From the NCBI GenBank assembly GCA_017635565.1, contig JAGBLE010000022.1, forward strand, positions 1 to 38,096: 38,096 bases of DNA. The letters run 5' to 3'. Shown here one piece after another: positions 7,014 through 33,276 of this stretch. How positions within the stretch are numbered: the first letter of the stretch is position 1; the number at the start of each line of letters is the position of its first letter. The stretch comes from Bacilli bacterium. GTDB lineage: Bacteria; Bacillota_I; Bacilli_A; RFN20; CAG-826. The position numbers and the translations under genes are program-made. The notes below the pieces were generated by a model. It saw only the letters and a list, made by a program, of their open reading frames with translations. It did no database searches and was not told the origin of the DNA.

Positions 7014-8759
7014 TTATTCTTTAATCCAAGCAGTCAATATTAAAGAATGATCTTCCCAGTGCTTTCCACAGGAAGCATAATCTTTGATGATAACTTTTTG
7101 ATTATTGAAGTTCCCTATCAAAGTAACGAAATCCCCTAATTTTGTTTCACATAATTTTAGATCTCTTATTTGAGAATAACTAAGTTCTTTTAAATCGATG
7201 TTTGGATTAGACTCACTATCGATTCCTAAAGTGATGTCGCCATAAGTTAAAGCGACATATTCTTTTAAGTGGTGGACTTCAATATGTAAATCAAATTTGA
7301 TTATTGCTTTTCCAACTTTGCCTAGAGATATATATCCAGTTTCTTTATGTTCATGTTCTTCATTATCAATTTTAATTAAGGTCTTTTTTGACCATTGAGG
7401 AATTCTTATTTTGATTGGTTTATTTGATTTATATTCAATTTCAACTTCACCTAAAGAGAAATAATCTCCAGATATCTTGATTTCAAAATCTTTTCCCTTA
7501 ACTTCAGAATTAAAATATTCATTAATGTAAATATTATTTTCATCTTCTGCATAATTTAAATTTGCAAGTAAACCAGCAGAAGCCGCTCCAATACAAGCAC
7601 AACAACCATAACTTGTTCCATCTTTGAAGAAATTATGTCCACCAGTAGAAATGCCTCTTCTGTTTAAATAAAGAGGAGAATAACTATCAAATGGTAGTGG
7701 TTCGACATCTTTCTTAGCAAAATAGGCCCAACCTTTTTCTTTATTAAAATTAATGCTTCCGTAGAATGAATTTAATCCGGCTTTAATAAATCTTTCGTAA
7801 TATTTGATATCACCAGTGTGGAAATATAATTTCGCTAAGATTCTCATCCAAGTAACAACCACGCAAGTTTCTTGCATGAATCTTGTTTCTTTCGTTAATT
7901 GATTAATGACTGTGTCAGAAAAACATTCTTCATTAGTGCCAGCGTTACCAATGATGCTGATTTCGTATTTATTTACATCTTCAAAGAAACGAAGAGATAT
8001 TTTCATTAATTCATCATTGTTTGTTAGCTTCGCGTATTCAAATATTCCTTCGAAAAATGACATTGTTTCGTACGCTTTTTGTTCTGGGTATTCAACAGGT
8101 CGATGGATTCCATTTTTTACTTCTTCAATTAAGCTTCCATCCCTAATACCGCCTTCGGAAACAATATAAGAGGCAAAATCAAAATAACGGGCTTCTTTGC
8201 TTTTTTTATATAAATCAATAATGGCCTCTAATATTGAACTTGAATTAACTCCAAGCCACCATTCACTCGTATCCGTTATTCTTATTTGGCCTGGTTTATT
8301 ACCGATTTTTGATATCAAATAATCAACGTGCCTCATACACGCATTTAATACCACTTTTTTGAGATCTTCTTCGTGACAAATATCGTAAAAATGTAATAGA
8401 CCAGTTAAAACATATTTTCGGCACCAAATATCCCAAGACTTAAATTCATTATCAACTTTATAGGTTGAGAATCTTCCTAATTCATCCTGGGTTTTTAATA
8501 ATTTAATAACTGCTTCTTTTAAGACTTCATATAATTCTTTTGATTTATTGAATTGATAAACAAGACAGCCACCTCTCATGCACTTGCCCCAATATTCGCC
8601 TCTCCAATATTCATCTTCGTTATCGGCTTTATCGGTGAAGACACTGACAAATCTTGACCACATTTCTCTGTTTAATAATTGTTCTTGAGATATGAAATCA
8701 ATCATTTTTGATATCTGGTTATTTTGCTTAATGTTTTGAAAAGTTAAATACTGCATCAT
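7014..8759 (-). CDS. GH127-like glycosidase (beta-L-arabinofuranosidase/DUF1680 family)
   Basis: A 581-aa cytoplasmic enzyme of the (alpha/alpha)6-barrel GH127 type. The zinc/catalytic set known from HypBA1 (Glu338, Cys340, Cys417, Cys418) has clear counterparts: Glu297 and Cys299 in QETCVV, and Cys386-Cys387 in YGCCAC, so it should be active. The C-terminal beta domain (NIYINEYFNSEV onward) is present. I start at ATG 8759 because GGAG ends 6 nt upstream; the frame extends 22 codons further (to 8825) without such support. Known GH127 activities are beta-L-arabinofuranoside and aceric-acid hydrolysis, and I cannot tell which applies here. It is transcribed divergently from the phosphatase-GH2 gene and forms an operon with the DUF4434 gene. 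Confidence 0.85.
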   Translation of the reverse strand: MMQYLTFQNIKQNNQISKMIDFISQEQLLNREMWSRFVSVFTDKADNEDEYWRGEYWGKCMRGGCLVYQFNKSKELYEVLKEAVIKLLKTQDELGRFSTYKVDNEFKSWDIWCRKYVLTGLLHFYDICHEEDLKKVVLNACMRHVDYLISKIGNKPGQIRITDTSEWWLGVNSSSILEAIIDLYKKSKEARYFDFASYIVSEGGIRDGSLIEEVKNGIHRPVEYPEQKAYETMSFFEGIFEYAKLTNNDELMKISLRFFEDVNKYEISIIGNAGTNEECFSDTVINQLTKETRFMQETCVVVTWMRILAKLYFHTGDIKYYERFIKAGLNSFYGSINFNKEKGWAYFAKKDVEPLPFDSYSPLYLNRRGISTGGHNFFKDGTSYGCCACIGAASAGLLANLNYAEDENNIYINEYFNSEVKGKDFEIKISGDYFSLGEVEIEYKSNKPIKIRIPQWSKKTLIKIDNEEHEHKETGYISLGKVGKAIIKFDLHIEVHHLKEYVALTYGDITLGIDSESNPNIDLKELSYSQIRDLKLCETKLGDFVTLIGNFNNQKVIIKDYASCGKHWEDHSLILTAWIKE

Positions 8760-8785
8760 GACATTCTCCAATAATATATTAATAT

Positions 8786-8815
8786 TTATTATTCGCATTT
8801 CGAAATTACTTTCAA
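8786..8815 (-). promoter_or_regulatory. Weak candidate promoter for the GH127-DUF4434 operon
   Basis: On the minus strand, TTGAAA (8815-8810), an 18-nt spacer and TAATAA (8791-8786) lie upstream of the GH127 ribosome-binding site. The -10 is imperfect, so this is a tentative assignment. Confidence 0.3.
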
Positions 8816-8835
8816 AAATCGACAATATTTAGCAT

Positions 8836-8900: not shown

Positions 8901-11864
8901 ATGGATATATATTATATTCGCCATGGTGAGCCTGATTACCAAGCTCAAAATCAACCGTTAACAAAGATTGGTCACAAGCAAGCAAGAGCAGTGTCCAAAT
9001 TTTTATCGAAGATTGATTTTGATCTCATTTTTTCTTCTCCCCTTTTAAGAGCGAGACAAACTGCTTCCTATACATGTAAAAAACTAAATAAGGATTATAT
9101 TGTTCAGGATTGGTGTAGCGAAAAAAAAGCGATTGAAGATGTTGGCTATCGAGATGAAAACGGCAGAGTTCTTAATTGGATTATGTTTCATCAAGAAATT
9201 CAAGATGATATTAATAGACTAATAGATGATTCAAATTGGTATAACGATCCTGTTTTCAAAAATCGTTGTTTTTATGAAAGAGGAAGGGACCGTGTCCTTT
9301 CTTCAATGAAAGAATGGATGAAAGAATATCTTAATGTTGAATTTGATGGAGAGCATTTCAAAGCTTTAGGAGAAACCCCAAAAAATATTGCGATATTCGC
9401 TCACGGGGGCTTTGCAACATTATTTTTCAGCACAATTCTTCACTCTCATTACTTGAAGTTTATTAAAAATTTTAATTGTTTAGAGCTCGCAGGAGTCGCT
9501 CATTTAAGAATTGATTTTGATTCTGAAAATCCAAAAGTTGAAGTCCTATCTTATAACGATATTTATTATGATTCCGAGATGAGATATAAGGATATTCAGT
9601 TAGAGCCAAAATGGAAATTATATTACGCTGATGATAAAGATTATCACGGAAAAATAAATTTGATTTATCACTTTGATCACTTTGATAACGTTAAAATCCC
9701 AACCTTATTTGAATGGGAACTATTTAAAAACGGAAAAGAAAAAGATCCATATTATTCCACTTATATTTGGGATTATCAAAAATATGAATCTTATCATCAG
9801 TTTTATGTTTTGAATTTTTCTTCTACTAGAAAACATAAAATATTAAAACTAAATGGAATAGATACGATAAGTGAAGTTTTTGTTAATGGAAAACTTATTG
9901 GAAAAACAGACAATATGTTTATTCCTTATCTATTTGAATTAGATAATTTAAAAAAAGAAAATAATGAATTAATTATTCATATTCTTCCTAGTGTTTTAGA
10001 AGGAAAGAAATATGGATATGACCCTGATAAAGTTTATGCGATGAAATATAATCATGAAGGCTTATATATTCGTAAAAGCGCGCATAGTTTTGGCTGGGAT
10101 ATATTACCAAGAACGCCTCTAGGTGGAATATATAAAAATGTTGAATTTATTAATAAACTTCCTCTTATAAAAGACGTCCATATTTCTAGTTACGATATCT
10201 CAAAAGAATCTGCGACATTAAAATTTGACATCCTTTTAAATAATGATGATATTAAAAATTATGAATATACGATTGAAGGAAAATGCAAAACACATAGTTT
10301 CTTTAGAAGAAGTAACAAAATAAAACTTCATAAACCAAAATTATGGGATATCAAATATTACGGTGAACCCAACCTTTATAAAATAATCATTAAAATATAT
10401 AAGGATAATAAGGTTATCGCTACTAAGAAGATAAATTATGGAATTAGAAAAGTTGAATTATTCAGAACTTCAAATGTTGAAGAAAATGGAAAATTTGAAT
10501 TCCATATTAACGGAGAAAAAGTGTTCTTAATTGGCGCAAACTGGACTCCAGTTGATGCGATTAGTCATTTAAATAAGCGAAGAATGCTGAAAGCGGTAGA
10601 TCTTCTCGATGATTTAGGATGTAATGTCGCTCGTATTTGGGGCGGTGGAAGTTACGAACTTGATGAATTTTATGATGAATGTGATAAACGCGGCATCTTT
10701 GTTTGGCACGATTTCATGATGGGGTGTGCAATATATCCAAACGATTTAGAATTCCAAAAGAAAATCAAAAAAGAAGTTGAATATATCGTCCCTCATTTAA
10801 GAAATCATCCTTCGATTTGCTTATGGAGTGGTGATAATGAATGCGATATTGCTGCGGCAAGATGGATTGGTGGGAATAAGTTTAACCCTGGCAATAATGT
10901 TTTAACTCGTAAAGTTATTCCAAATTTACTTAAAAAACTTGATGACCAAAGACCATATTTACCTTCATCACCATATTTTGATGAATACGCTTACGCTCAC
11001 GTTGATGAACAGACTTCAGAAGATCATGTCTGGGGACCAAGAGATTATTTTAAAGGCGAATATTATGCGAATTCTCAATGTTATTTTGTTAGTGAAACCG
11101 GTTATCATAGCCTAAACGATTATGAATCATTAACCACTTATTTGAAAAATCCTTGGCCATTATTTGAAGGCAAAATGAAGATTAATGAAAAAACAAGATT
11201 AATTGAAGAAGCAACTCCGACAAAAGAATATTTAGCCCACGCGACTAGTGTGGTTGATGATATTAATTCTCCATATGCTTATCGAATTATGTTAATGGCG
11301 AATCAAGTTCGAACGTTATTTGTGGATGAATTAAAAGATCCAGATGATTTTATATTTGCTAGCCAAGCTTCTCAAGGAGAAGCGATGAAATATTTCATCG
11401 AAAGAATGAGAAAGAATTATTCTCGTAATGGCGGCATCATTTGGTGGAATCTTTTAGATGGGTGGCCTCAACCATCTGATGCGGTTGTTGATTATTACTT
11501 CCGTAAGAAAAATGCTTATTATTACATTAAACGCAGTCAGCAAAAGAATTTATTTATGCTTGAAGAAGAAAACAATAAACTCAATTTATATTGGTCTTCT
11601 TTGGATAGCACATCACACACTTTCAAATATCAAATAATCGATGCTTACAATAATGAGAAAATAATTGATGAAGGAGTGGTAACCACTCAAGGACATTCTT
11701 CTCAATTAGTCAAAGCAATAAAAGCGGATTATCGTACTCTCTTAATTATTAAATATGTCGATGAAACTGGAAAAGAATATATCAATCATTTCCACACTCA
11801 TATTCGAGATCTTGATTTTAAAAAATACAAGGATGCTATTAATAAATATGATCTTTTGAAGTAG
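8901..11864 (+). CDS. Fusion of histidine phosphatase and GH2 beta-mannosidase
   Basis: A 987-aa protein joining two enzymes in one uninterrupted frame. Residues 1 to about 215 are a complete histidine phosphatase (phosphoglycerate-mutase superfamily): RHGEP with His8, SSPLLRARQTA, and AHGG with His168. From about 225 to the end it is a GH2 beta-mannosidase: a jelly-roll (EVFVNGKLIG), an Ig-like domain and a TIM barrel with acid/base Glu647 (WSGDNE) and nucleophile Glu732 (FVSETG). There is no signal peptide, so it acts in the cytoplasm. The phosphatase could remove phosphate from imported phospho-mannosides or from mannose-1-phosphate made by GH130 45 bp downstream; both are inference. No Shine-Dalgarno sequence precedes the ATG. 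I know of no standard family with this architecture. Confidence 0.9.
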   Translation: MDIYYIRHGEPDYQAQNQPLTKIGHKQARAVSKFLSKIDFDLIFSSPLLRARQTASYTCKKLNKDYIVQDWCSEKKAIEDVGYRDENGRVLNWIMFHQEIQDDINRLIDDSNWYNDPVFKNRCFYERGRDRVLSSMKEWMKEYLNVEFDGEHFKALGETPKNIAIFAHGGFATLFFSTILHSHYLKFIKNFNCLELAGVAHLRIDFDSENPKVEVLSYNDIYYDSEMRYKDIQLEPKWKLYYADDKDYHGKINLIYHFDHFDNVKIPTLFEWELFKNGKEKDPYYSTYIWDYQKYESYHQFYVLNFSSTRKHKILKLNGIDTISEVFVNGKLIGKTDNMFIPYLFELDNLKKENNELIIHILPSVLEGKKYGYDPDKVYAMKYNHEGLYIRKSAHSFGWDILPRTPLGGIYKNVEFINKLPLIKDVHISSYDISKESATLKFDILLNNDDIKNYEYTIEGKCKTHSFFRRSNKIKLHKPKLWDIKYYGEPNLYKIIIKIYKDNKVIATKKINYGIRKVELFRTSNVEENGKFEFHINGEKVFLIGANWTPVDAISHLNKRRMLKAVDLLDDLGCNVARIWGGGSYELDEFYDECDKRGIFVWHDFMMGCAIYPNDLEFQKKIKKEVEYIVPHLRNHPSICLWSGDNECDIAAARWIGGNKFNPGNNVLTRKVIPNLLKKLDDQRPYLPSSPYFDEYAYAHVDEQTSEDHVWGPRDYFKGEYYANSQCYFVSETGYHSLNDYESLTTYLKNPWPLFEGKMKINEKTRLIEEATPTKEYLAHATSVVDDINSPYAYRIMLMANQVRTLFVDELKDPDDFIFASQASQGEAMKYFIERMRKNYSRNGGIIWWNLLDGWPQPSDAVVDYYFRKKNAYYYIKRSQQKNLFMLEEENNKLNLYWSSLDSTSHTFKYQIIDAYNNEKIIDEGVVTTQGHSSQLVKAIKADYRTLLIIKYVDETGKEYINHFHTHIRDLDFKKYKDAINKYDLLK

Positions 11865-11909: not shown

Positions 11910-12905
11910 ATGGCAAAAGTACTCAATGCAAAAATTGTACAAAATTTACCTTGGGAAGAACGTCCAGAAGGATATTTTTTACCGGTATGGAGGTATTCTA
12001 AAAACCCAATTATCAATCGTAATGTCAATCGTGTGATTGAAAGAACATTCAATAGTGGTTTTGTTCCATTTAATGGAGAATTTGTTGGCGTTTTTAGAGG
12101 CGATAATTACGCGGCACAATTTAATTTATATGTTGGTCGTAGTAAAGATGCACTTCATTTTGAATTAGATGAAACACCAATTCAATTTGTTGATAAAGAT
12201 GGAAAGCCTGCTAGTAAAAATAGATATTCATATGACCCACGTGTTGTTGAATTAGAAGGCAGTTATTATATTATTTTCGCTGATGAATTTGATGAAGTCA
12301 CAATTGGCATTGCTAAAACCGATGACTTCAAAACATTTACAAAATTAGAATACCCATTCTTACCGAACTGCCGTAATGGCGCTTTATTTCCTAGAAAAAT
12401 AAATGGAAAATACATGATGCTCTCTAGACCAAGTGATAACGCTTCTAGTTTCTTTGGCAACATTTTCATCTCTGAATCTAAAGACATGGAATATTGGGGA
12501 CATCACCGATTATTGACCAGAAACTGTTGGGCAAATTGGAATAATGTCAAATGTGGCGGAGGACCAATCCCAATTGAAACTGATGAAGGGTGGTTAGTCA
12601 TAATTCATGGAGTGTTTTATAACGTCAATACTTATGTTTATTCAATGGGCGCGATGATTTTAGATAGAGATGATCCAACTAAAATCTTATATAAATGCAA
12701 AAATTTCATTTTAACCCCACAGGAACCTTATGAAATTAATGGTCACACTCCAAATGTTGTTTTCCCAACAAATGTTTTAGTTGGTGAAAATGGCAAATTA
12801 GCAATTTATTATGGCGCAGCGGACGATTGTACTTGTGTAGCTTTTACCACAGTTGATACATTAATTGACTATATCAAGGAACACGATTGTCAAAATCAAA
12901 AATAA
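11910..12905 (+). CDS. GH130 beta-mannoside phosphorylase
   Basis: A 331-aa cytoplasmic five-bladed beta-propeller of family GH130. Family hallmarks include the early NPIINRNVNR segment, NGEFVGVFRGD, YDPRVVELEGSYYI with the probable catalytic Asp109, CGGGPIPIETDEGWLVIIHG, and the C-terminal YYGAADDCTCVA. Most GH130 enzymes phosphorolyse beta-mannosides (Man-beta-1,4-Glc, Man-beta-1,4-GlcNAc or beta-mannan oligosaccharides) to mannose-1-phosphate, conserving bond energy. The subfamily cannot be settled from sequence alone. AAAGGAAAG precedes the ATG. The 45-bp gap after the phosphatase-GH2 gene indicates one operon and a shared beta-mannoside pathway. Confidence 0.92.
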   Translation: MAKVLNAKIVQNLPWEERPEGYFLPVWRYSKNPIINRNVNRVIERTFNSGFVPFNGEFVGVFRGDNYAAQFNLYVGRSKDALHFELDETPIQFVDKDGKPASKNRYSYDPRVVELEGSYYIIFADEFDEVTIGIAKTDDFKTFTKLEYPFLPNCRNGALFPRKINGKYMMLSRPSDNASSFFGNIFISESKDMEYWGHHRLLTRNCWANWNNVKCGGGPIPIETDEGWLVIIHGVFYNVNTYVYSMGAMILDRDDPTKILYKCKNFILTPQEPYEINGHTPNVVFPTNVLVGENGKLAIYYGAADDCTCVAFTTVDTLIDYIKEHDCQNQK

Positions 12906-12961: not shown

Positions 12962-14977
12962 ATGGATAAATGGTATAAAGGTGTATATCGTCGAAATCTA
13001 GTTGATATGCATATTAATGATGATAATGATTTATATTTATCAAGGTTTTCTCCTGTTGATTATTTTAATTATTTAAAAAACGCTAAAATACAAAGTCCAA
13101 TGATTTATTTACAAGCACATACTGGACTATGTTATTTTCCAAGCAAAGTTTGTAAGACTCATAAATATTTTCAAAAGCATCCTCATGCGATAAAAGAATT
13201 AATTGATTTGTGTAAAAAAGACGACATGAAAGTCGTTGGTTATTATTCTTTAATTTACAATAACGAAGCAGTCATTTCTCATCCAGAATGGGAATGCAAA
13301 TACGAAAATGGCGATACTTATCGCTCTCGAGGACAGCGATATGGTTTAGCGTGTCCAAACAATAGTGAATATCGTCAATTTGTTCAAGAACAAATCAAAG
13401 AAATGGCGGAGGAATATAATAACTTAGATGGATTATTCTTCGATATGCCATTTTGGAGTTTTCCTTGCTATTGCGAATCTTGCCAAAAAAGATATCAAAA
13501 AGAATATGGCGTTAATCCTCCAACCATCGTTGATTTTAGTAATCCAGAATATTTAAGATTTACAAAAGCTCGACAATTATGGATGGGGGAATTCACTCAA
13601 TTTGTTAAAAAAGAGACAAATAAATATTTTCCAAACACAACTGTTGAATTTAATTTTGCGGCAGTTATTGGCTGCGATTATACAGCGGGCTCCACTGAAC
13701 TAATTAATGAAACCTGTGAATTTGCGGGTGGAGATTTATATGGAGATTTATATAACCATTCTTTTGTTTGTAAATATTATTATCAAATTTCCAATAATCA
13801 ACCATTTGAATATATGACATGCCGCTGTAATGATTTACTAAGGGAACACACAATCAATAAACCGCTTATCCAACTCGAAAACGAGATCATGTTAAGCGCG
13901 ATGCATCATGCGGCAAGCTTAATTATTGATGCGATTGATCCTGATGGAAGTCTTGATTATCGAGTAAGCGATACTTTATCAAAAGCATTCTCTTATCAAA
14001 TCCCATACGAACCATTTATGGATAAAGGCGAATTATTTGGAGAAATCGCAATATATTTCGATAGCGGAGTCCAATTTGATTATTTGGGACATAAATCAAA
14101 TAAAGAAGTCGCGATAAATTTGTCGAAAACGCTTATTGAAAATCATATTCCATATCACATTATCGCAAATGGACACCTAAACAATTTAAATAGATATAAG
14201 ATGATATTTGCTCCTTCATTATTCAATTTTGATAATAATGAAAGATTGAAACTTATTGATTATGTGAATAATGGAGGTCTTCTTTATTTGTCAAGTTACG
14301 CTGATAAGCGTTTATTAAAAGAATTTTTTGATGGAGAAATTATTGGCCAAATCAATCGAGAAAGCCCATACCCAATTATCGACAGGGGTTTTCCTGAAGT
14401 ATTTAGTTATATTTATCCAGTAAGTGAAAAATATCAAAAATATTTTGAAGAATTTAATGAGAAATATCCTCTTCCTTTAAGATATTATTTACCGGAATTT
14501 AAATTTAATGTTGGAGAGGTAACTGCAAAAATAATCGTTCCTTTTACTGACCCAAATGACTCGAATAAATATGCTTCCATCCATTCAAATCCACCGGGAA
14601 TTAAAACTGAATACCCCGCTATAGTGGAAGCAAAATATGGCAAAGGGAAAGTTATTTATTCTGTTGCTCCGCTCGAAGGAGAAGGACGTATTAACTATAA
14701 AGAAATTATTAAACGCATCATTTTTGATAATTATGATCCTTTAATCAAAGTTAAAACATCAAAATATGTCGAATCTATTATTTTCAAAGATAACGAAGAC
14801 TATTATATCAATCTTGTGGATCTTAATTTCTTTAACGAAGTAGTGACAAGAAATTACGAAATTAATCTACCAAATATTGATGAATATGAATTCGTCGAAA
14901 CGATTTCTAATAAAAAGATTTCCCCAAGAGGAACATTTGAAAAATATGTTTCTATTCACCTAAAACGCAAAAAATAA
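12962..14977 (+). CDS. GHL6-type glycoside hydrolase with beta-galactosidase trimerisation domain (possible alpha-L-fucosidase)
   Basis: A 671-aa cytoplasmic protein. Residues 1 to about 340 form a TIM barrel of the hypothetical glycosyl hydrolase 6 type, with the signature LDGLFFDMPFW (Asp161, candidate nucleophile) followed at once by the Cys cluster CYCESC. Residues about 350-460 (EIAIYFDSG..., IIANGHLNNL, NNGGLLYLSSYA) are a flavodoxin-like beta-galactosidase trimerisation domain, and a small beta domain ends the protein. This architecture recalls GH29-related and GH151-like alpha-L-fucosidases, but substrate is not established. AAAGGAGAG lies just before the ATG. It is the third gene of the mannoside operon, so a side-chain-trimming role (for example fucose) is plausible. 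Confidence 0.75.
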   Translation: MDKWYKGVYRRNLVDMHINDDNDLYLSRFSPVDYFNYLKNAKIQSPMIYLQAHTGLCYFPSKVCKTHKYFQKHPHAIKELIDLCKKDDMKVVGYYSLIYNNEAVISHPEWECKYENGDTYRSRGQRYGLACPNNSEYRQFVQEQIKEMAEEYNNLDGLFFDMPFWSFPCYCESCQKRYQKEYGVNPPTIVDFSNPEYLRFTKARQLWMGEFTQFVKKETNKYFPNTTVEFNFAAVIGCDYTAGSTELINETCEFAGGDLYGDLYNHSFVCKYYYQISNNQPFEYMTCRCNDLLREHTINKPLIQLENEIMLSAMHHAASLIIDAIDPDGSLDYRVSDTLSKAFSYQIPYEPFMDKGELFGEIAIYFDSGVQFDYLGHKSNKEVAINLSKTLIENHIPYHIIANGHLNNLNRYKMIFAPSLFNFDNNERLKLIDYVNNGGLLYLSSYADKRLLKEFFDGEIIGQINRESPYPIIDRGFPEVFSYIYPVSEKYQKYFEEFNEKYPLPLRYYLPEFKFNVGEVTAKIIVPFTDPNDSNKYASIHSNPPGIKTEYPAIVEAKYGKGKVIYSVAPLEGEGRINYKEIIKRIIFDNYDPLIKVKTSKYVESIIFKDNEDYYINLVDLNFFNEVVTRNYEINLPNIDEYEFVETISNKKISPRGTFEKYVSIHLKRKK

Positions 14978-15282: not shown

Positions 15283-16995
15283 ATGAAAAAAAGATTTTTA
15301 ATCGGTATGGTCTTACCTTTAACCGCGGCTAGTTTTGTTGTGGGCTGCCGTCCTACCTCTTCTGGAGACAAAATTGACGTCACAAAAACGCAAATTTATA
15401 TCAATAACTTCAAGAGAGGATTTGGTAGCAAATGGCTTGATGATTTAAAAACACGTTTTGAATCTTTGCACGCTGAAGATAGCTACGAAGAAGGCAAAAA
15501 GGGAGTTGAAATCATTATCCACAGTATCGGTTCCACAGCTGATTCAAGAAAGGCCAACATCTTAAGTGGTGTCGATGAAATCTATTTCACCGAACAATCC
15601 TATTATTACGATTTAATTAAATATGAAAAAGACGGGGTTCTTTATGATATCACGGATGCAGTTAAGAATCCTTTAACTGAATATGGTGAAACAAAATCCA
15701 TCGAAGATAAATTAACTGAAGAACAAAAAGATTATTTCTATTATCAAAATGAAGGAGGAGAAAAGAAATATTACGCTCTTCCTCACTATGCTGGATATTT
15801 TGGACTTCAATATGACATTGATGTTTTTGATAACTACATGTTCTATTTTGCCAAAAATCCTATTTCACCAGAATATCCATTTATTCGAGATTTGACTGAT
15901 GAAAAAACAGCAGGTCCAGATGGAGTTGAAGGAACTTTTGATGATGGGCTGCCAAGAACATATGATGAATTCTTTAAATTATGTGATTATATGGTTGAAA
16001 ATGATGTCATTCCATTTATTTCAACCGGTGCTAATGCCAACGACTATTTGAACTTATTAGTTAATGCTTTTGCAGCGGATTATGCTGGAAAAGATAATAC
16101 GGTTGCTAAATTCAAAGCCTCTGGCACAGTTTCTCGCCTTGGAAATGTTGATTCAAACGGAAATGTTACTCCTATTCCAGATGAAACATTGACCATTGAT
16201 ACTGGATATAGAGCATATAAGAGTTTAGGTTTTTATTACGGATTAGAGTTCTTAAAGAAATTAACATCTAACAAGAATTATTATTTCCGTGGCGCTAACG
16301 GAAGTGGCGGTCTTGATTCAAGTGCTTATTCTGCTAAATCTGCACAAGATGAATTCTTGATTTCTTATCGAGATAGCAAAAGAGGAAAATCTAAAGATAT
16401 TGCCATGATATCCGAAGGTATTTGGTGGGAAGCTGAATCAGAAACAACTTCTGAAACTCTTTCAGGTGGAAATCCAAATTCTCCATACGCAAAAATGAAT
16501 CGTCACTTTGGCTTTATGCCTTTCCCAAAAGCCACAATGGAAAGATATGAAGAAAGTAATAAAAATACTTTATTTGATCATTTGTTCTCCTTGATGTTTG
16601 TCAAACGTAATGTTGCTTCTTGGAAAGCACCTTTACTTCTTGATTTCATGAGATTTGCTAATACTGATGAATCTTTAAGAGCGTTCACAAGAATTACAAA
16701 CACTCCTAAATCACTCAATTACACAATGACTGATGAGGATAAAGCGCAAATGACTGCTTATGGTAGAAACTTAATTGAATTAAAAGAAAATTCCGATATC
16801 GTCTACCCAGGTAATAGTTCAACAATTTATCAACTCAATTCCGGCTGGTTCCATCATAATTCTCAATATTCCGCTTTAATTGATGGTGTGAGAAATGATT
16901 ATGTCTGGCAAGCCTTACCTAAAGTGAGCGCAGCTACATATTATAATGGCATGTATGCCTACTATAGTGATTATTGGAAAAATTTAGCTAAATAA
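15283..16995 (+). CDS. ABC transporter extracellular sugar-binding lipoprotein
   Basis: A 570-aa lipoprotein. The signal MKKRFLIGMVLPLTAASFVVGC ends in a lipobox with the lipidated Cys22. The mature protein has the layout of family 1 solute-binding proteins, including NILSGVDEIYFTEQSYYYDL near the N-terminus, the hinge-region ALPHYAGYFGLQYDIDVF and YDEFFKLCDYM. At 570 aa it is longer than common MalE-type proteins (about 400-450 aa), fitting binding of larger oligosaccharides. GGAGG precedes the ATG. It heads an operon with two permeases 20 and 25 bp downstream, each beginning at or near the previous stop. The promoter carries the shared regulatory element, so expression is probably induced by the target glycan. 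Confidence 0.92.
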   Translation: MKKRFLIGMVLPLTAASFVVGCRPTSSGDKIDVTKTQIYINNFKRGFGSKWLDDLKTRFESLHAEDSYEEGKKGVEIIIHSIGSTADSRKANILSGVDEIYFTEQSYYYDLIKYEKDGVLYDITDAVKNPLTEYGETKSIEDKLTEEQKDYFYYQNEGGEKKYYALPHYAGYFGLQYDIDVFDNYMFYFAKNPISPEYPFIRDLTDEKTAGPDGVEGTFDDGLPRTYDEFFKLCDYMVENDVIPFISTGANANDYLNLLVNAFAADYAGKDNTVAKFKASGTVSRLGNVDSNGNVTPIPDETLTIDTGYRAYKSLGFYYGLEFLKKLTSNKNYYFRGANGSGGLDSSAYSAKSAQDEFLISYRDSKRGKSKDIAMISEGIWWEAESETTSETLSGGNPNSPYAKMNRHFGFMPFPKATMERYEESNKNTLFDHLFSLMFVKRNVASWKAPLLLDFMRFANTDESLRAFTRITNTPKSLNYTMTDEDKAQMTAYGRNLIELKENSDIVYPGNSSTIYQLNSGWFHHNSQYSALIDGVRNDYVWQALPKVSAATYYNGMYAYYSDYWKNLAK

Positions 16996-17015
16996 AAATA
17001 GTTTGAAATTGGAAT

Positions 17016-17915
17016 ATGAGTAGGAAGAAGTTTTTCAGTAAGGATTTAATCTTCTACGTTGTAATGCTGGCGTTCCCAGTATTACAATTTTGCATATTCT
17101 ATATCGGGGTTAATGGAAGGTCATTACTCTTTGCTTTTCAAACCGTTGATCAATATAATAACGCGACATTTGATATTACTGCTTTAAGTAATGCATTTCA
17201 TCAACTCTTTACCAAAACAATGTTAATTAAGATTGGTAATTCGTTTCTTGCTTTCTTATTAACATATTCAATCGGTACAACTTTAGCGTTATTCTTCTCT
17301 TACTTCATTTACAAAAAACTAGCAGGAAGCGCCCTATTTAAGGTATTTCTCTTCTTGCCTTCAATTATCTCTTCAATTATCTTAGCAACAATATTCCATT
17401 TCTTTATGGAAGAGGCTGTTCCTACTATTTCTAACCAGTGGTTCCACAATACGATAAGCGGATTGATGAGTAATCCAGACACTCGATTTGGTGTTGTTAT
17501 TTTCTACAATGTTTTAATGAGCTTTGGTACTTCTGTTCTCATGTATTCAAATGCGATGAGCGGATTATCTAATGAAATAGTGGAGGCCGCTAAAATTGAT
17601 GGTTGCAACCAATTTAGGGAGTTCTTCCATATTGTTTTACCAGGAATTTTCCCAACTATAACAACTTTTGCAATCACTAGTGTTGCAGCGATATTTGTTA
17701 ACCAATTAGCGTTATATTCGTTATATCCAGGTGGCGCGGATGCTTCTATTCAAACAATTGGATACTTCTTATATATCGAAACCTTAAGAGCGGGAGATAA
17801 CCAAGCTCAATATCCTCTTTTATGTGCGTTTGGCACTCTTATTTCTTTAGTTGCTATTCCTTTAACAATATTAACTAAATTCTTGTTAGAAAGATTTGGA
17901 CCATCAGATAAATAA
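17016..17915 (+). CDS. ABC sugar transporter permease (MalF/UgpA-like)
   Basis: A 299-aa integral membrane protein with about six hydrophobic segments, beginning at about residue 11 (IFYVVMLAFPVLQFCIFYIG). The EAA loop that docks the ATPase is present as EAAKIDG with Glu190, followed by the usual hydrophobic stretch and a final Pro-rich segment. It pairs with the next permease to form the channel for the binding protein encoded upstream. The ribosome-binding site is weak (TTGGAA), and the gene starts 20 nt after the binding-protein stop. The family imports oligosaccharides; specificity lies mainly in the binding protein. Confidence 0.92.
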   Translation: MSRKKFFSKDLIFYVVMLAFPVLQFCIFYIGVNGRSLLFAFQTVDQYNNATFDITALSNAFHQLFTKTMLIKIGNSFLAFLLTYSIGTTLALFFSYFIYKKLAGSALFKVFLFLPSIISSIILATIFHFFMEEAVPTISNQWFHNTISGLMSNPDTRFGVVIFYNVLMSFGTSVLMYSNAMSGLSNEIVEAAKIDGCNQFREFFHIVLPGIFPTITTFAITSVAAIFVNQLALYSLYPGGADASIQTIGYFLYIETLRAGDNQAQYPLLCAFGTLISLVAIPLTILTKFLLERFGPSDK

Positions 17916-17920
17916 TTATT

Positions 17921-18841
17921 ATGAAAAGTAGAGATCGTATTTTAGACAAATTTGCTCCAAAAAAGAAAAGTAGTGTTTCTATCTTTTCTATTGTCATTAT
18001 TGTGTTCTTAGCCTTATATTGCTTAACATTAATTACTTTATTTATTTGGGCGATTTTAGCCTCATTTAAAGAACCAGTTATGGAATGGAGAGAAAATGTT
18101 ATTGGCTTACCATATTCTTTCTACACTGATAATTATGAATTTTCTTTGGGAAGATTTTACGTTGATGTTACTGACCCTGTGACAAGTGAATCGATTCAAG
18201 TTACTCTTCCATATATGTTCTTATATGGCTTCTTATATGCGATTGGTTGTGCTTTTGCAGCGACAATTGTTCCAATGATTGTTGGTTATGTAACAAGTAA
18301 ATATCGCTATAAATTCTCAAAGGTCATATATTTTGTCGTTGTCATTGTCATGATTATTCCTATTGTCGGAAGTTTACCTGCCGAAATTAGAATGGCAAGA
18401 CGCTTTAACTTATATGACCAAATTTGGGGTATGTGGATTTTAAAGGCTAATTTCTTGGGCTTATATTTCCTAGTGTTTTATAACTTCTTCAGAAATTTAC
18501 CTGATGCATATAACGAAGCTGCTAAAATTGATGGAGCTGGCAATTTTAGAACGATGGTTCAAGTTATCATTCCTCTTGCGGCCCCATTGTTCTTTACTGT
18601 TTTATTAATTAACTTCATCCAATTCTGGAACGATTATTCAGTTCCACTTATCTATTTACCAACATATCCAACCGCTGCTGTTGGTATGCATCAAATGGCA
18701 GCCGGAAATGATAAAGAATTACAATATATTCCAATTAAATTAGCGGCAGCAATTATTATGCTTGTTCCTATTTTAATTGTGTTTCTTGCGACCCATCGAA
18801 AATTATTGGGTAATTTAACAATGGGTGGAATTAAAGGTTAA
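17921..18841 (+). CDS. ABC sugar transporter permease (MalG/UgpE-like)
   Basis: A 306-aa membrane protein and the partner of the permease just upstream. It begins 5 nt after that gene's stop with no ribosome-binding site of its own, so it is probably translated by coupling. A first membrane span lies at about 20-48, an extracellular loop follows (about 50-100), then further spans. The EAA loop reads NEAAKIDGAG with Glu199. No ATPase lies directly beside the pair; the nearest is at 24522-25241, after three exported-protein genes. Confidence 0.92.
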   Translation: MKSRDRILDKFAPKKKSSVSIFSIVIIVFLALYCLTLITLFIWAILASFKEPVMEWRENVIGLPYSFYTDNYEFSLGRFYVDVTDPVTSESIQVTLPYMFLYGFLYAIGCAFAATIVPMIVGYVTSKYRYKFSKVIYFVVVIVMIIPIVGSLPAEIRMARRFNLYDQIWGMWILKANFLGLYFLVFYNFFRNLPDAYNEAAKIDGAGNFRTMVQVIIPLAAPLFFTVLLINFIQFWNDYSVPLIYLPTYPTAAVGMHQMAAGNDKELQYIPIKLAAAIIMLVPILIVFLATHRKLLGNLTMGGIKG

Positions 18842-21822: not shown

Positions 21823-23805
21823 ATGAAAAAACAAAAATTGTTATTTGCTACATTATTAACTTTAGTAGCGACAACTACATTACTTTCTTGTAATAGCAAA
21901 GATACCGGCCCAAATATTAAAGGGGAACCAGTTGAAGAACCTGAAGCTCATTATGTTGATGGAATGCTCCATGAATTCAATGTTTCTGAATCTTCTACTC
22001 CTTTTATCACTAACGGACAATGCGAATACTCAATCATTTATGAAAAAGAATCTGAATGGGGAGATAAGGCCGCTTTGTTCTTACAAAGACATTTCAAAAA
22101 AGCAGTAGATGTCGCTATTAGTATTATCGAATATGATGGAACTAATTTTACTTATGATGCGAACAAAAAGATTATTTGTATCGATGTAAAAGATGTTTTA
22201 ACTGCCGCTAACATCACTAGCACTGATAAACCGATTGGCAATGCCGGATATCATTTACTCACTAAAGACAATTCTGTTTTTATTCAATGCAATTCAGGAT
22301 ATGGATATGTCAATGCATGCCGAACATTTTTAAATCAAGTTTTTGGATATGAAATCTACGCTGCTGATGTCATCATTTATAAAAAAGATGGTGCCACTCT
22401 TCCAAATATGGATATTTACGAAGCTCCAGATATGACTTATAAATTCCAATCAAATAAAGCTGACGATCAAGCTAGATATGAAATGGGTTTCTTAAATTGG
22501 GGGGAAGCATTTTATAACAAACAAAATGTTCCAACACAGCATAACGTTCTTACTTGGCTTCCTAAATCAGTTTATTTAGATTCGTCTAAACCAGAAACAT
22601 ATCATCCAAAATGGTATAACAAAACTCAAACTCAAATTTGTTGGACTGCTCATGGAGACAAGGATGAATATAATATTTTAGTTGATACATTATTTGAAAA
22701 ATTTAAAGAAGCATTAACTATCGATCCCGATGTTGGTACAATTCAATTCTCTCAAGAAGATCGCCCAGAATTATGTTCATGCGAAGGATGCTTAGAGTGT
22801 ATTCAAAAATATGGCGCTGACAGTGCTACCATGGTTCTTCTTTTAAACGATGTAGATGTTAAATTACAAGCGTGGCTTGAAGAACAAGCAGAAATCAACC
22901 ATACGAACAAAAGAGAAGTTAATCTCGCTTTCTTCGCTTATCAAAATTCTGAAAGACCATGTGCTCATAAAGATGAAAATGGAACTTGGGTTCCAAATCA
23001 TGAAGATGTTATTTGTCGAGACCATGTCGTCCCTTATATCGCTCCTATTTTTGCTAAATATGAAGAATCTTTCTATAGCAAAGGAAATGACACTGTTAGA
23101 GATACGATTAATGGGTGGAAAGCATTAAGTAAATATGCTTATTTCTGGATTTACGAAACTAACTTTAGTAATTACATTTATCCATTTAATTCATATACAA
23201 CAATGATTGATACATATCGATACATTATCGATAATGGTGCACAGTTCCTCTTTAACGAAGGACAACACGATAATGATGCTGTTCCTTGCTTTGGAAAATT
23301 TAAAGAATATTTCAATTATGTTACCTTAAATGATGTTAATGCTAAATATAGTGATATCGTTGAATCTTTCTTCACTAATTATTTCAATTTGGCCAAAGAA
23401 CCAATGCTTAAGATGTTCTATGAAATTCAAGAATATATGCTTTATTTAAGACAAACTTATCCAACTGAATTAGATGGCACAATTTATGAAGATGTTTCTC
23501 AAACTCAATTCTGGCCTTTAAATATCTTGCAAAGATGGCAAGGATATTGTGATGAAGCCTTTAAAGCAATTGAAAAAATTAAAACTTCTAATTTAGCTTT
23601 ATATACCATTTTATATCGACATATCGTTCTTGAATCGATTTTCCCTCAATTTGCGATATTAGACAATCATCGTGGAAAATTCTCTAATAGCCAAGTTAAC
23701 GAAATGGTTAAAAAGCTTTTATCTGATTGCCAATTAGCGAAAGTTACAAAAGCTGCAGAAGGTCGATCAATTATCCCAGTTATTTCAGCTTGGAGTGCAA
23801 TGTAG
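21823..23805 (+). CDS. DUF4838 lipoprotein, putative glycan hydrolase
   Basis: A 660-aa lipoprotein with lipobox LLSC and Cys23. After a linker comes a GH67/GH20-like N-terminal alpha/beta subdomain (to about residue 190: GYGYVNACRTFLNQVFGYEIY), then the DUF4838 barrel. That barrel has a Cys cluster CSCEGCLEC (about 325-335), a IYETNFSNYIYPFNS block and GQHDNDA, and is followed by a helical C-terminus. It is a full-length, intact paralogue of the split gene at 2334-5994. GGGAGGG precedes the ATG. Located right after the transporter and the Ig-like exoprotein, it probably acts on the cell surface on the same glycan. The catalytic residues of DUF4838 are not known to me, so activity is inferred. 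Confidence 0.82.
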   Translation: MKKQKLLFATLLTLVATTTLLSCNSKDTGPNIKGEPVEEPEAHYVDGMLHEFNVSESSTPFITNGQCEYSIIYEKESEWGDKAALFLQRHFKKAVDVAISIIEYDGTNFTYDANKKIICIDVKDVLTAANITSTDKPIGNAGYHLLTKDNSVFIQCNSGYGYVNACRTFLNQVFGYEIYAADVIIYKKDGATLPNMDIYEAPDMTYKFQSNKADDQARYEMGFLNWGEAFYNKQNVPTQHNVLTWLPKSVYLDSSKPETYHPKWYNKTQTQICWTAHGDKDEYNILVDTLFEKFKEALTIDPDVGTIQFSQEDRPELCSCEGCLECIQKYGADSATMVLLLNDVDVKLQAWLEEQAEINHTNKREVNLAFFAYQNSERPCAHKDENGTWVPNHEDVICRDHVVPYIAPIFAKYEESFYSKGNDTVRDTINGWKALSKYAYFWIYETNFSNYIYPFNSYTTMIDTYRYIIDNGAQFLFNEGQHDNDAVPCFGKFKEYFNYVTLNDVNAKYSDIVESFFTNYFNLAKEPMLKMFYEIQEYMLYLRQTYPTELDGTIYEDVSQTQFWPLNILQRWQGYCDEAFKAIEKIKTSNLALYTILYRHIVLESIFPQFAILDNHRGKFSNSQVNEMVKKLLSDCQLAKVTKAAEGRSIIPVISAWSAM

Positions 23806-23816
23806 GAGAGATGAAG

Positions 23817-24446
23817 ATGAAAAATATATTTACTAAAACATTATTCTTATTATCTGCTTTACCTATTTTAATCACAGGCTGTAATAAGTCTGAAAATAGT
23901 AGTGATAAACCAGATGATAAAAAAGAACCTTCTTTAACAATTGATGTTGAAACTTTAACAATTGAAAAATTTGAATCCGCTCAATTGACATATACATTAT
24001 TAAATTCAGATGCGACTGTTTCTTGGGCAAGCAGCAATTCTTCTATTGCCACGATTGATCAAGATGGAAATCTATACGCTTGTGGAGTTGGTAGTGCTTA
24101 TATCAGTGCCACTGCTGGAGATTTGGTAAGTAGTTGTACAGTTACCGTTACTCCTTCAACTATTGCTCCTACATTAGTTTACGATACTGATGAAATAACA
24201 ATGTCTACCGAAGATAATTTTGAGCAAGACTTATATGTTTCTTTTAAAGGAGAATTTGTTCTTGCTGATATCTCTTTAGCCTTAGATAAAGACGCAACAA
24301 CTGGATTAATTGAATATTCTTATGACGCTGAAAATGGAAGACTATCAATTAGTTCTAAACAAGTGACAGGTTCAACTGTTTTAGTTGCAGGAATTGAAAT
24401 ATATGACACTGTTTTGTCACATAAATTTGTTGTCACTATTTTATAA
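23817..24446 (+). CDS. Small lipoprotein with bacterial Ig-like (Big_2) domain
   Basis: A 209-aa lipoprotein, with signal MKNIFTKTLFLLSALPILITGC and lipidated Cys22. Residues about 45-115 form a Big_2-type Ig domain with the characteristic VSWASSNSSIATIDQDGNL and TAGDLVSSCTVTV. The remaining about 90 residues form an uncharacterised beta domain. I chose ATG 23817 because GGAG at 23805-23808 is 8 nt upstream; the in-frame ATG at 23811 is too close, and an upstream extension overlaps the DUF4838 gene. It is the last gene of the importer operon and probably a surface-located structural or binding accessory. Confidence 0.82.
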   Translation: MKNIFTKTLFLLSALPILITGCNKSENSSDKPDDKKEPSLTIDVETLTIEKFESAQLTYTLLNSDATVSWASSNSSIATIDQDGNLYACGVGSAYISATAGDLVSSCTVTVTPSTIAPTLVYDTDEITMSTEDNFEQDLYVSFKGEFVLADISLALDKDATTGLIEYSYDAENGRLSISSKQVTGSTVLVAGIEIYDTVLSHKFVVTIL

Positions 24447-30614: not shown

Positions 30615-31664
30615 ATGAGAGTTGAAAGCGAATTCCGACAAGGAAAAGCAAATATAGCCTTAAAATTTGATGGCTATTATGTTTGGGATACTTCCGTTAT
30701 AAGAGTTAAAAACAAATATTATATGTTTGTTTCCAGATGGAAAAAAGAACTTGGTTTTGGATGGAATTGGCTTTTTCATTCTCAAATTGTTTTGGCGGTA
30801 AGCGATTATCCAGAAGGTCCATATAAATTTGAAAAAGTTATCTTTGAAAGAAGAGGAAAAAAGTTCTTTGATGGAATGAACACTCATAACCCATCCATTA
30901 AATATTTTAATGGTAAGTTTTATCTTTATTATATGGGTTGTACATATGACTTTGATCCGCCAAAGCACGAATATGAAATTACTCCTGAAATGGTTTATCC
31001 AACTTGGTATAGCAAGCGTATTGGTTTAGCAATATCAGATAAAATTGATGGAGAATATATTAGAAAAGACGAGCCAATATTACTTCCAAGAAAAGGTAAT
31101 TATTGGGATAGTGGAATTACCACTAATCCGGCTCCTGTTATTTTTGATAATGGAGAGACTTTCTTGCTTTATAAATCAAAAATATTTGATACCAAAATGG
31201 ATGCTAGTAATCCTCTTAAGGTTGGTGTCGCACACGCTAATCACCCAGAAGGACCATATGAACGTTATTATGATGAACCAATATTAGATGAACCTGGAAG
31301 TGCATATGAAGATCCATATATTTGGTTTGATAAGAATAAGAAACGTTTTTGTGTTTTATTGAAGGACTGCACTGGTTCTGTTGGTGGAGAATATGGTGAT
31401 TTATTATATGCAGAAAGCGAAGACTGTAAGCATTTCTATTTTGGAGAATCTCCTCGGTTAATTTCTCGTCATATTACATGGGTTGATGGCCATAAATCGC
31501 ATCAGTGTAATTTAGAAAGACCATGTCTTTTATTTGATGAAAGTGGTGTTCCTACTCATTTATTCTGTGCGAGTGGAAGCGGGGATGAGCCATATTTCTT
31601 TAAAGAAGAAACATATATTTTATGTATTAAATTAGAAAGAAAAAATAATCATGAAAACGAATAG
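30615..31664 (+). CDS. GH43-like five-bladed propeller glycoside hydrolase
   Basis: A 349-aa cytoplasmic protein with a GH43/GH117-type beta-propeller pattern. Blades open with YYVWDTSVIRVKNKYYMF, HNPSIKYFNGKFYLYYMG, TNPAPVIFDNGETFLLYKS and YEDPYIWFDKNKKRFCVLL, and a final Glu lies in NLERPCLLFD. The Asp of WDTS and a later Glu are plausible catalytic acids. I start at ATG 30615, 5 nt after GAGGT, rather than at an upstream TTG. Closest CAZy subfamily and substrate (arabinofuranoside, xyloside or galactoside) cannot be told. Its last 14 bases overlap the PTP-like lipoprotein gene, so the two are co-translated. Confidence 0.75.
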   Translation: MRVESEFRQGKANIALKFDGYYVWDTSVIRVKNKYYMFVSRWKKELGFGWNWLFHSQIVLAVSDYPEGPYKFEKVIFERRGKKFFDGMNTHNPSIKYFNGKFYLYYMGCTYDFDPPKHEYEITPEMVYPTWYSKRIGLAISDKIDGEYIRKDEPILLPRKGNYWDSGITTNPAPVIFDNGETFLLYKSKIFDTKMDASNPLKVGVAHANHPEGPYERYYDEPILDEPGSAYEDPYIWFDKNKKRFCVLLKDCTGSVGGEYGDLLYAESEDCKHFYFGESPRLISRHITWVDGHKSHQCNLERPCLLFDESGVPTHLFCASGSGDEPYFFKEETYILCIKLERKNNHENE

Positions 31665-33276
31665 GAAGATTATTTCATCGCTTTTTATCACATTATGTTG
31701 TGCTTTTACTAGTTGCTCTAATGGGGGAAGCGAATCGAAAAGAACATATTTAGTAAAATTCCAAAATTATGATAAGTTCCTTTTGTATAGTGTGAATGTC
31801 AAAAGCGGAGATTCAGTTAATTATAAAGGCCCAACTCCAACTAGAAATAGTGGGGATGACACGATATTTTATCGTTGGACTGGATGGGATAAAGAATTAA
31901 CAAATATTATATCTGACACAACTTTTACTGCGACTTATTATCAAGGCAATCGATATAAAGCAACATTTATTAATGATGATTTAATTCTTCAAGATAAACG
32001 TTTTAATGAAAATGTTATTCCTACTTATAATGGTCCAACCCCAACCAAAGAAAGCGAAAGCGAAGATGAATTATATGTTTTTTCCGGTTGGAGTCCTGAA
32101 CTTACCCCAATTACAAAAGATACGACCTATTACGCCCAATATAACGTGATTGGTAAAGATGACATGATTGTCATCAATAACAAAGATCACGATGAATTTA
32201 ATGCGAATATCGATATGGTGAAAAATTATTTTGAATTAGAAGATAATCCAAATACTGAAAATAATGAAATCGCTCAGTTCCTGACTCAATATGGTCACCA
32301 AGGTGGCTATAACGGGGCAAAAGGGTATGAAATTAGTTGGGGAAAATTAGGCTCCCCATCTAATTCTTATACGGTTGAAATATCTTCAAAATCTTCATTA
32401 GATCCAGTTGAAATGAGAATTGATACTGATAATGATTCTTGTTATGTATATAATCTAGTTCCTGGAACATATTATTATCGAATTAAAGATAATAATAGCT
32501 CCGGTCGAAGCCAAATTCAGTCTTTCTCTTTCACTAATAGGCTTAGAACAATTGAAACCAAAGGTGAACTTAGCAATATGAGAGATATCGGTGGATATCG
32601 CACTAATGATAATAAACAAATTAAGTATGGTCTTATTTATCGTAACGCTCATATGGGAGATGCAGGTAAATATATTGATTATTTATTTAAGGATTTATTA
32701 AAAATAAAAACTGAATTAGATGTCAGATTCCCAAAAGGTGATGATTCTCCTACTCGATATTCTAGTTCAGAACATCCGGTTGATGGAGTTAGCTTCTATA
32801 ATTACGGATTAACCGATGCTTATCCTTACATGATTAGTGATAATAACACGATTGCCAGTATAAAAAGTATTTTTACGTTATTAACTAATGGTTCTTCTTT
32901 ACCACTTAGTTTTCACTGCACAAATGGAGCAGATCGCACTGGTTTACTTGCTTTACTAATTGAAGGAGCATTAAACGTTTGCGATGAAGACATTTATCGC
33001 GATTATGAGTTAACGAGTTTCTGCGCGAAATCATCTTATTGGCAACCACGTTGTGATATTGTTAGCGAAGGTAGTGCTTATAAATTTAGAGAAGATGGAT
33101 ATCGAAGTGATACATGGAGAAATGGAAGCTTTGAAAAAGTAATTATTGATATGAAAAAAACATATTCAAATTCTACCGCCTCAATTGCAGAAACTGTTTA
33201 TAATTTCTTAACAAAAAAATGTGGAGTAACTCCAACTCAAATTCAAACATTAAGACAAACTTTAGTAAGTGAATAA
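31651..33276 (+). CDS. Secreted lipoprotein with InlB-type repeats and a tyrosine-phosphatase-like domain
   Basis: A 541-aa lipoprotein, with lipobox FTSC and Cys22. Residues about 30-170 hold two InlB B-repeat (Flg_new) modules, each ending in W.....I..DT...A.Y (FYRWTGWDKEL, YVFSGWSPEL). About 170-300 is a fibronectin-like domain (GYEISWGKLG...GTYYYRI). About 305-541 is a PTP-fold phosphatase: LSNMRDIGGYRT, YRNAH, and the active-site loop HCTNGADRTG, a complete C-x5-R with Cys423 and Arg429. This resembles the Tyr_phosphatase3 group, some members of which act on non-protein phosphates. It is exported, so the target is outside the cell. It overlaps the GH43-like gene by 14 bp and converges with the FAD gene 2 bp away. 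Confidence 0.85.
   Translation: MKTNRKIISSLFITLCCAFTSCSNGGSESKRTYLVKFQNYDKFLLYSVNVKSGDSVNYKGPTPTRNSGDDTIFYRWTGWDKELTNIISDTTFTATYYQGNRYKATFINDDLILQDKRFNENVIPTYNGPTPTKESESEDELYVFSGWSPELTPITKDTTYYAQYNVIGKDDMIVINNKDHDEFNANIDMVKNYFELEDNPNTENNEIAQFLTQYGHQGGYNGAKGYEISWGKLGSPSNSYTVEISSKSSLDPVEMRIDTDNDSCYVYNLVPGTYYYRIKDNNSSGRSQIQSFSFTNRLRTIETKGELSNMRDIGGYRTNDNKQIKYGLIYRNAHMGDAGKYIDYLFKDLLKIKTELDVRFPKGDDSPTRYSSSEHPVDGVSFYNYGLTDAYPYMISDNNTIASIKSIFTLLTNGSSLPLSFHCTNGADRTGLLALLIEGALNVCDEDIYRDYELTSFCAKSSYWQPRCDIVSEGSAYKFREDGYRSDTWRNGSFEKVIIDMKKTYSNSTASIAETVYNFLTKKCGVTPTQIQTLRQTLVSE

What the first reader, a model, noticed from the sequence alone, without database searches (positions are those of the whole stretch)
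8901..11864. Histidine phosphatase fused to a GH2 beta-mannosidase
One uninterrupted 987-aa frame joins a complete phosphoglycerate-mutase-type phosphatase (His8 in RHG, Arg-rich SSPLLRARQTA, His168 in AHGG) to a complete beta-mannosidase with both catalytic Glu residues (647, 732). This suggests dephosphorylation and mannosidic cleavage are coupled. Possible substrates are imported phospho-mannosides, or mannose-1-phosphate from the GH130 encoded next in the operon. I do not know this architecture from described families.
Basis: partly seen in the sequence, partly recalled or inferred. Interest (0 to 1): 0.72.

Follow-up and report, generated by a model that had tools for sequence, protein, structure and literature searches.

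The report
Phosphatase fused to a mannosidase
In one uncultured bacterium a complete phosphate-removing enzyme and a complete sugar-cutting enzyme are joined in a single protein; no other such protein turned up in about 2,000 genome searches, but free-standing relatives of the phosphatase sometimes sit beside sugar-cutting genes, so it may be a local twist on a recurring partnership whose purpose is unproven.

Summary
The frame is real in the assembly. Window 8901-11864 (+) encodes 987 aa: an intact histidine-phosphatase domain (about 1-222; R7, H8, R50, E74, H168) joined by a short linker to an intact GH2 enzyme of beta-mannosidase type (about 230-987; E647, E732). A GH130 predicted to be a true phosphorylase and an ABC sugar importer lie downstream. 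I found no other fusion of this kind. The same GH2 is a separate gene in a same-genus genome (60% identical) and in about 35 Clostridia genomes; in 18 of those loci read in full it often adjoins a ROK kinase and SIS isomerase, never this phosphatase. The nearest phosphatase (44% identical, same family) is a separate gene beside a GH106-like gene; more distant ones adjoin GH38 or GH127. One GH2 relative carries an SGNH esterase at the same N-terminal position. So the architecture is apparently new, but derived and seen in one MAG. Most likely it is a cytosolic bifunctional enzyme whose phosphatase serves sugar-phosphate or glycan processing. The Man-1-P link to GH130 is weakened: no GH130 lies near any phosphatase relative examined. 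The domain calls hold; functional coupling is unproven.

The parts
8901..9566 (+). Histidine-phosphatase (branch 1) module, residues 1-222; R7, H8, R50, E74, H168
   Evidence: Pfam His_Phos_1 3.3e-16; five catalytic positions invariant in 27 sequences; AF2 pLDDT 94.7; Foldseek PDB matches to histidine phosphatases, best E 2.4e-12
9567..9590 (+). Junction/linker, residues 223-230 (DSEMRYKD); contains Met227 without SD
   Evidence: Comparison with the stand-alone phosphatase of G105 (ends SYNRTFY) and stand-alone GH2 of G217 (starts MKTTLTNNWKLY); pLDDT below 50 at 216-232
9591..11861 (+). GH2 module of beta-mannosidase type, residues 231-987; acid/base E647, nucleophile E732
   Evidence: Pfam; PDB 9nfe 8.6e-107, beta-mannosidases 5n6u 2.8e-77 and 2je8 5.3e-59; alignment to 2je8 puts E647 and E732 opposite its NNE and SE glutamates
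11910..12905 (+). GH130, 331 aa, predicted beta-mannoside phosphorylase
   Evidence: PF04041 1.1e-62; best PDB 1vkd, then RaMP2 5ayd and UhgbMP 4udg; candidate phosphate-binding basic residues (R of RNG, R of SRPSD, H of IIHGV) are kept
12962..14977 (+). GHL6/fucosidase-like glycoside hydrolase, same direction
   Evidence: PF14871 2.5e-20, PF01120 1.7e-9
15283..18841 (+). Sugar ABC importer: lipoprotein binding protein and two permeases
   Evidence: TIGR03850 4.1e-6 (weak, below cut-off), BPD_transp_1 2.5e-13 and 7.5e-16
7014..8825 (-). GH127-like gene, divergent neighbour
   Evidence: PF07944 1.5e-25

Best explanation
A cytosolic bifunctional enzyme made by joining a complete histidine phosphatase gene of a subfamily that recurs beside glycosidase genes to a complete GH2 exo-beta-mannosidase gene. 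Inferred sequence of events: the ABC importer brings in a beta-mannose-containing oligosaccharide; the GH2 half cleaves the terminal beta-mannose by the retaining mechanism (E647 acid/base, E732 nucleophile); the phosphatase half, through a phospho-His8 intermediate, removes phosphate from a sugar phosphate of the same pathway, either a phosphomonoester on the glycan or a phosphosugar intermediate. The fusion mainly fixes 1:1 production and proximity of two activities. Shown: intact frame, intact active sites, predicted folds, neighbours. Inferred: activity of each half, substrate, location, and any coupling.
For: Intact domains and catalytic residues. No signal peptide is visible and the frame starts on the first strand of the phosphatase fold. 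The nearest phosphatase in the tree (G105, 44% identical, sister with 100/96 support) is a separate gene read into a GH106-like gene with a 35-bp gap. Further relatives adjoin GH38 in L097 (23 bp), L109 (4-nt overlap) and L113 (14 bp), and GH127 in L098 (120 bp). GH38 adjacency in 3 of about 20 loci against about 0.05 expected from 52 GH38 matches in 19 genomes (rough, one gene per kb assumed, L109 and L113 being one lineage). The same GH2 clade carries other accessory hydrolases: SGNH esterase fused N-terminally in G057, and SGNH esterase plus a secreted Y_phosphatase3 in one gene run in G226.
Against: The fusion is a singleton; none of 18 further GH2-clade loci in Clostridia has a histidine phosphatase near it, whereas many have a ROK kinase and a SIS isomerase, which implies phosphorylation, not dephosphorylation, of the released sugar. 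Several phosphatase relatives have neighbours with no link to glycans (MFS, AMP-binding, FMN reductase). A type I mannose-6-phosphate isomerase match is missing from the incomplete genome, so mannose use is not confirmed. No activity data.
Confidence: 0.45

Rival explanations
1. The phosphatase half dephosphorylates mannose-1-phosphate made by the neighbouring GH130 phosphorylase, so the free mannose from both enzymes enters one route (ROK kinase). A specific form of the best explanation.
For: GH130 directly downstream and predicted to be a phosphorylase, since the basic residues are kept (rule separating GH130 hydrolases from phosphorylases from PMC4599007). Three ROK family members in the genome.
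Against: It wastes the energy saved by phosphorolysis (general knowledge). No GH130 homologue near any of 21 phosphatase relatives. G217 keeps GH130 and the GH2 without the phosphatase.
Confidence: 0.15
2. The phosphatase half removes a phosphomonoester cap from an imported glycan (for example Man-6-P on yeast mannan or N-glycan fragments), so that the exo-mannosidase can act. Also a specific form of the best explanation.
For: Some relatives adjoin GH38 alpha-mannosidase genes. In Bacteroides breakdown of yeast mannan, phosphatases act together with GH38 and GH76 (PMC10154615). A secreted Y_phosphatase3 lipoprotein lies in this window (31651-33276), and one lies in the gene run of the same GH2 in G226.
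Against: Import of phosphorylated oligosaccharides is not shown; beta-mannosides with a terminal phosphate are not known to me to be common; neighbours include GH106 and GH127, which are not mannosidases.
Confidence: 0.15
3. Chance gene fusion: a generic sugar-phosphate or housekeeping phosphatase became joined to GH2 with no functional link, tolerated by both halves.
For: Found in one genome only; near-seamless joining of two complete genes with a linker of about 8 residues; no conserved pairing of this phosphatase with this GH2.
Against: Both active sites fully conserved despite a long end branch (1.28); the closest relative is also beside a glycosidase gene.
Confidence: 0.3
4. Assembly or binning artefact: two adjacent genes fused by an error in the MAG.
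For: One MAG contig, no reads available; same-genus G217 has a separate GH2 gene.
Against: No leftover SD at Met227, stops in the other frames, no homopolymer longer than 5 at the join, same GC3 on both sides; the GH130 downstream matches the genus (80% identical to G217).
Confidence: 0.07

Closest known systems
GH2 exo-beta-mannosidases (BtMan2A 2je8; 5n6u) and the GH2 structure 9nfe
   Same: GH2 domain order, both catalytic Glu, WGGGxYE motif, Asp of GWD kept
   Different: No phosphatase part in those matches; the clade is nearer to 9nfe, whose deposited name gives no specificity
Stand-alone histidine phosphatase next to a GH106-like gene in G105 (L038:3180-3836)
   Same: 44% identical over the whole module, same five catalytic residues
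   Different: Separate gene; partner GH family differs
SGNH esterase-GH2 fusion in G057 (L037:9035-11905)
   Same: Same GH2 clade (46% identical) with an accessory hydrolase fused at the same N-terminal position
   Different: Esterase of the SGNH/GDSL family in place of the phosphatase
Branch-1 histidine phosphatases of known structure (9mmh riboflavin pathway, 4ij6 phosphoserine, 4pz9 glucosyl-3-phosphoglycerate)
   Same: Fold and catalytic set
   Different: 17-21% identity, TM-score to query about 0.6; the substrate cannot be transferred

Membership tests
Histidine phosphatase superfamily, branch 1 | RHG motif, second Arg, second His, acidic donor | tested here: met
   R7, H8, R50, E74, H168 invariant in 27 sequences
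Histidine phosphatase superfamily, branch 1 | Fold | tested here: met
   AF2 pLDDT 94.7 and Foldseek E 2.4e-12 to histidine phosphatases
Histidine phosphatase superfamily, branch 1 | Phosphatase rather than mutase activity | not testable with these tools
   No assay; no NCBIfam equivalog cut-off for a named phosphatase or mutase is reached
GH2 beta-mannosidase | GH2 domains and two catalytic Glu | tested here: met
GH2 beta-mannosidase | Mannosidase-type active-site motifs (WGGG, GWD) | tested here: met
   W580, G581, G582 and D400 invariant in ten sequences, G583 at least 90%; aligned to 2je8
GH2 beta-mannosidase | Hydrolysis of beta-mannosides | not testable with these tools
   Closest structure 9nfe bears no specificity in its name
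GH130 mannoside phosphorylase (neighbour) | Three basic phosphate-binding residues | tested here: met
   R, R, H aligned with RaMP2 and UhgbMP; the rule is from PMC4599007, which residues they are is from own knowledge
Known histidine phosphatase-GH2 architecture | Other proteins with both domains in one frame | tested here: not met
   None in nine protein searches of whole genomes (overlapping sets), one genome-contig scan, plasmids, viral contigs; no paper found. InterPro and metagenomes were not available

The most novel reading that the evidence does not exclude
A single-chain enzyme that first removes a phosphate cap from an imported mannoside and then cuts off the uncovered mannose, i.e. 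a dedicated phosphomannoside-degrading enzyme pointing to an unrecognised phosphorylated glycan diet.
Probability: 0.15. Interest if true: 0.65.

Novelty: new variant of a known kind. Interest (0 to 1): 0.38.

Why it matters
If the two activities serve one substrate, the fusion is a pointer to what the histidine phosphatases lying beside GH38, GH106 and GH127 genes in uncultured bacteria are for; I found no assigned substrate for them. The fused protein gives one expressible object with two separately mutable active sites to test that.

Tried and rejected
Internal start at Met227 giving a separate GH2 product: no SD, so unlikely but not excluded. The GH2 gene at 35563-38016 as a paralogue with a similar fusion: it begins at the GH2 domain, no phosphatase. 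Searches for the fusion in plasmids and viral contigs: GH2-only or phosphatase-only hits, or nothing. Literature searches for histidine phosphatase with GH2, with mannan loci, for the 9nfe paper, and for phosphatase/GH bifunctional enzymes gave nothing on point. The 378-aa phosphatase frame in L138 was not followed further; its extra N-terminal stretch may be only a start-codon choice.

Full report
Observation. The frame 8901-11864 (+) is open from ATG to TAG and encodes 987 aa. Pfam places a histidine phosphatase (branch 1) at the start and three GH2 families from residue 263. The five catalytic positions of the phosphatase (R7, H8, R50, E74, H168) are invariant in 27 relatives. The GH2 glutamates E647 and E732 align with the catalytic glutamates of BtMan2A, E462 and E555 in that protein's numbering (alignment; numbering from own knowledge of Tailford 2007). 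The phosphatase module alone folds with mean pLDDT 94.7. In the full-length model both modules are folded, the join 216-232 is of low confidence, and parts of the GH2 active-site region are weak, probably because the alignment was shallow.

Is the join real? The stand-alone phosphatase of G105 ends at the residue matching Tyr222, and the stand-alone GH2 of G217 begins at the residues matching about 230. So two complete genes are joined with some eight residues between. There is no ribosome-binding site at Met227, no long homopolymer, the other frames hold stops, and composition is even across the join. It is one contig of one 73%-complete MAG; no reads were available.

How widespread? In 279 genomes of the order no other fusion was found. 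One same-genus genome (G217) has the GH2 as a separate gene (60% identical), with an 80%-identical GH130 6 kb upstream. G226 has it as a separate gene followed by an SGNH esterase and a secreted Y_phosphatase3. G057 has an SGNH esterase fused to the same GH2 at the same end. In Clostridia about 35 of 113 genomes of one family hold the GH2 clade at 36-47% identity, none in a frame longer than 851 aa. In 18 such loci read in full there was no histidine phosphatase beside it, but a ROK kinase within three genes in eight and a SIS isomerase in five. The fusion is therefore derived and, on present sampling, unique. The genome searches overlap, so the total of 1,996 counts genome searches (family searches included), not distinct genomes.

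The phosphatase. Its sister is the G105 gene, 44% identical, which is a separate gene and runs into a GH106-like gene. More distant relatives in Clostridia adjoin GH38 (three loci, two lineages), GH127, an FGGY kinase, and also genes unrelated to glycans. GH38 adjacency exceeds a rough chance expectation of 0.05. No GH130 gene lies in these loci. The fold search gives many histidine phosphatases with similar scores (riboflavin pathway, phosphoserine, glucosyl-3-phosphoglycerate), so the substrate cannot be read from the fold.

The neighbourhood. GH130 (45 bp downstream) keeps the basic residues expected of a phosphorylase (PMC4599007; the identity of the residues in UhgbMP is from own knowledge). 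A GHL6 protein and an ABC importer follow in the same direction. An ABC importer, unlike a PTS, does not phosphorylate its cargo (general knowledge); whether phosphate-decorated glycans arrive is unknown.

Mechanism. The safest statement is a bifunctional cytosolic enzyme: a retaining exo-beta-mannosidase with a histidine-phosphatase module whose substrate is a sugar phosphate or a phosphorylated glycan of the same pathway. I give this general reading 0.45. The Man-1-P reading and the phosphate-cap reading are specific forms of it (0.15 each, inside the 0.45); chance fusion without functional link (0.3) and artefact (0.07) stand against it. The evidence does not decide between them.

Verdict. 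The architecture appears undescribed in what could be searched, but it is one derived protein of two ordinary families, so I rate it a new variant of a known kind with moderate interest.

Noticed in passing
L037:9035-11905 (-), G057: 956-aa fusion of an SGNH/GDSL esterase to the same GH2 clade, at the same N-terminal position as the phosphatase here.
   Followed up: partly
window 31651-33276 (+): Secreted lipoprotein with a C-terminal Y_phosphatase3 domain carrying HCTNGADRTG; a related secreted phosphatase lies in the gene run of the same GH2 in G226 (L036:6996-8069).
   Followed up: partly
L141, L144, L146, L151, L153, L155, L094, L037: The GH2 clade repeatedly adjoins a ROK kinase and, in several loci, a GmhA-like SIS isomerase: a possible mannose route (hydrolase, kinase, isomerase) in which the SIS protein may act as mannose-6-phosphate isomerase.
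   Followed up: partly
L097, L109, L113: Histidine phosphatase genes directly adjoining GH38 alpha-mannosidase genes, overlapping by 4 nt in L109.
   Followed up: partly
window 21823-24446 (+): A DUF4838 frame (21823-23805) overlaps a frame with a Big_2 domain (23727-24446); possibly one gene split by a frameshift.
   Followed up: no
window 35563-38016 (+): A second GH2 of mannosidase type with an Ig_mannosidase domain, 26% identical to the fused one.
   Followed up: partly
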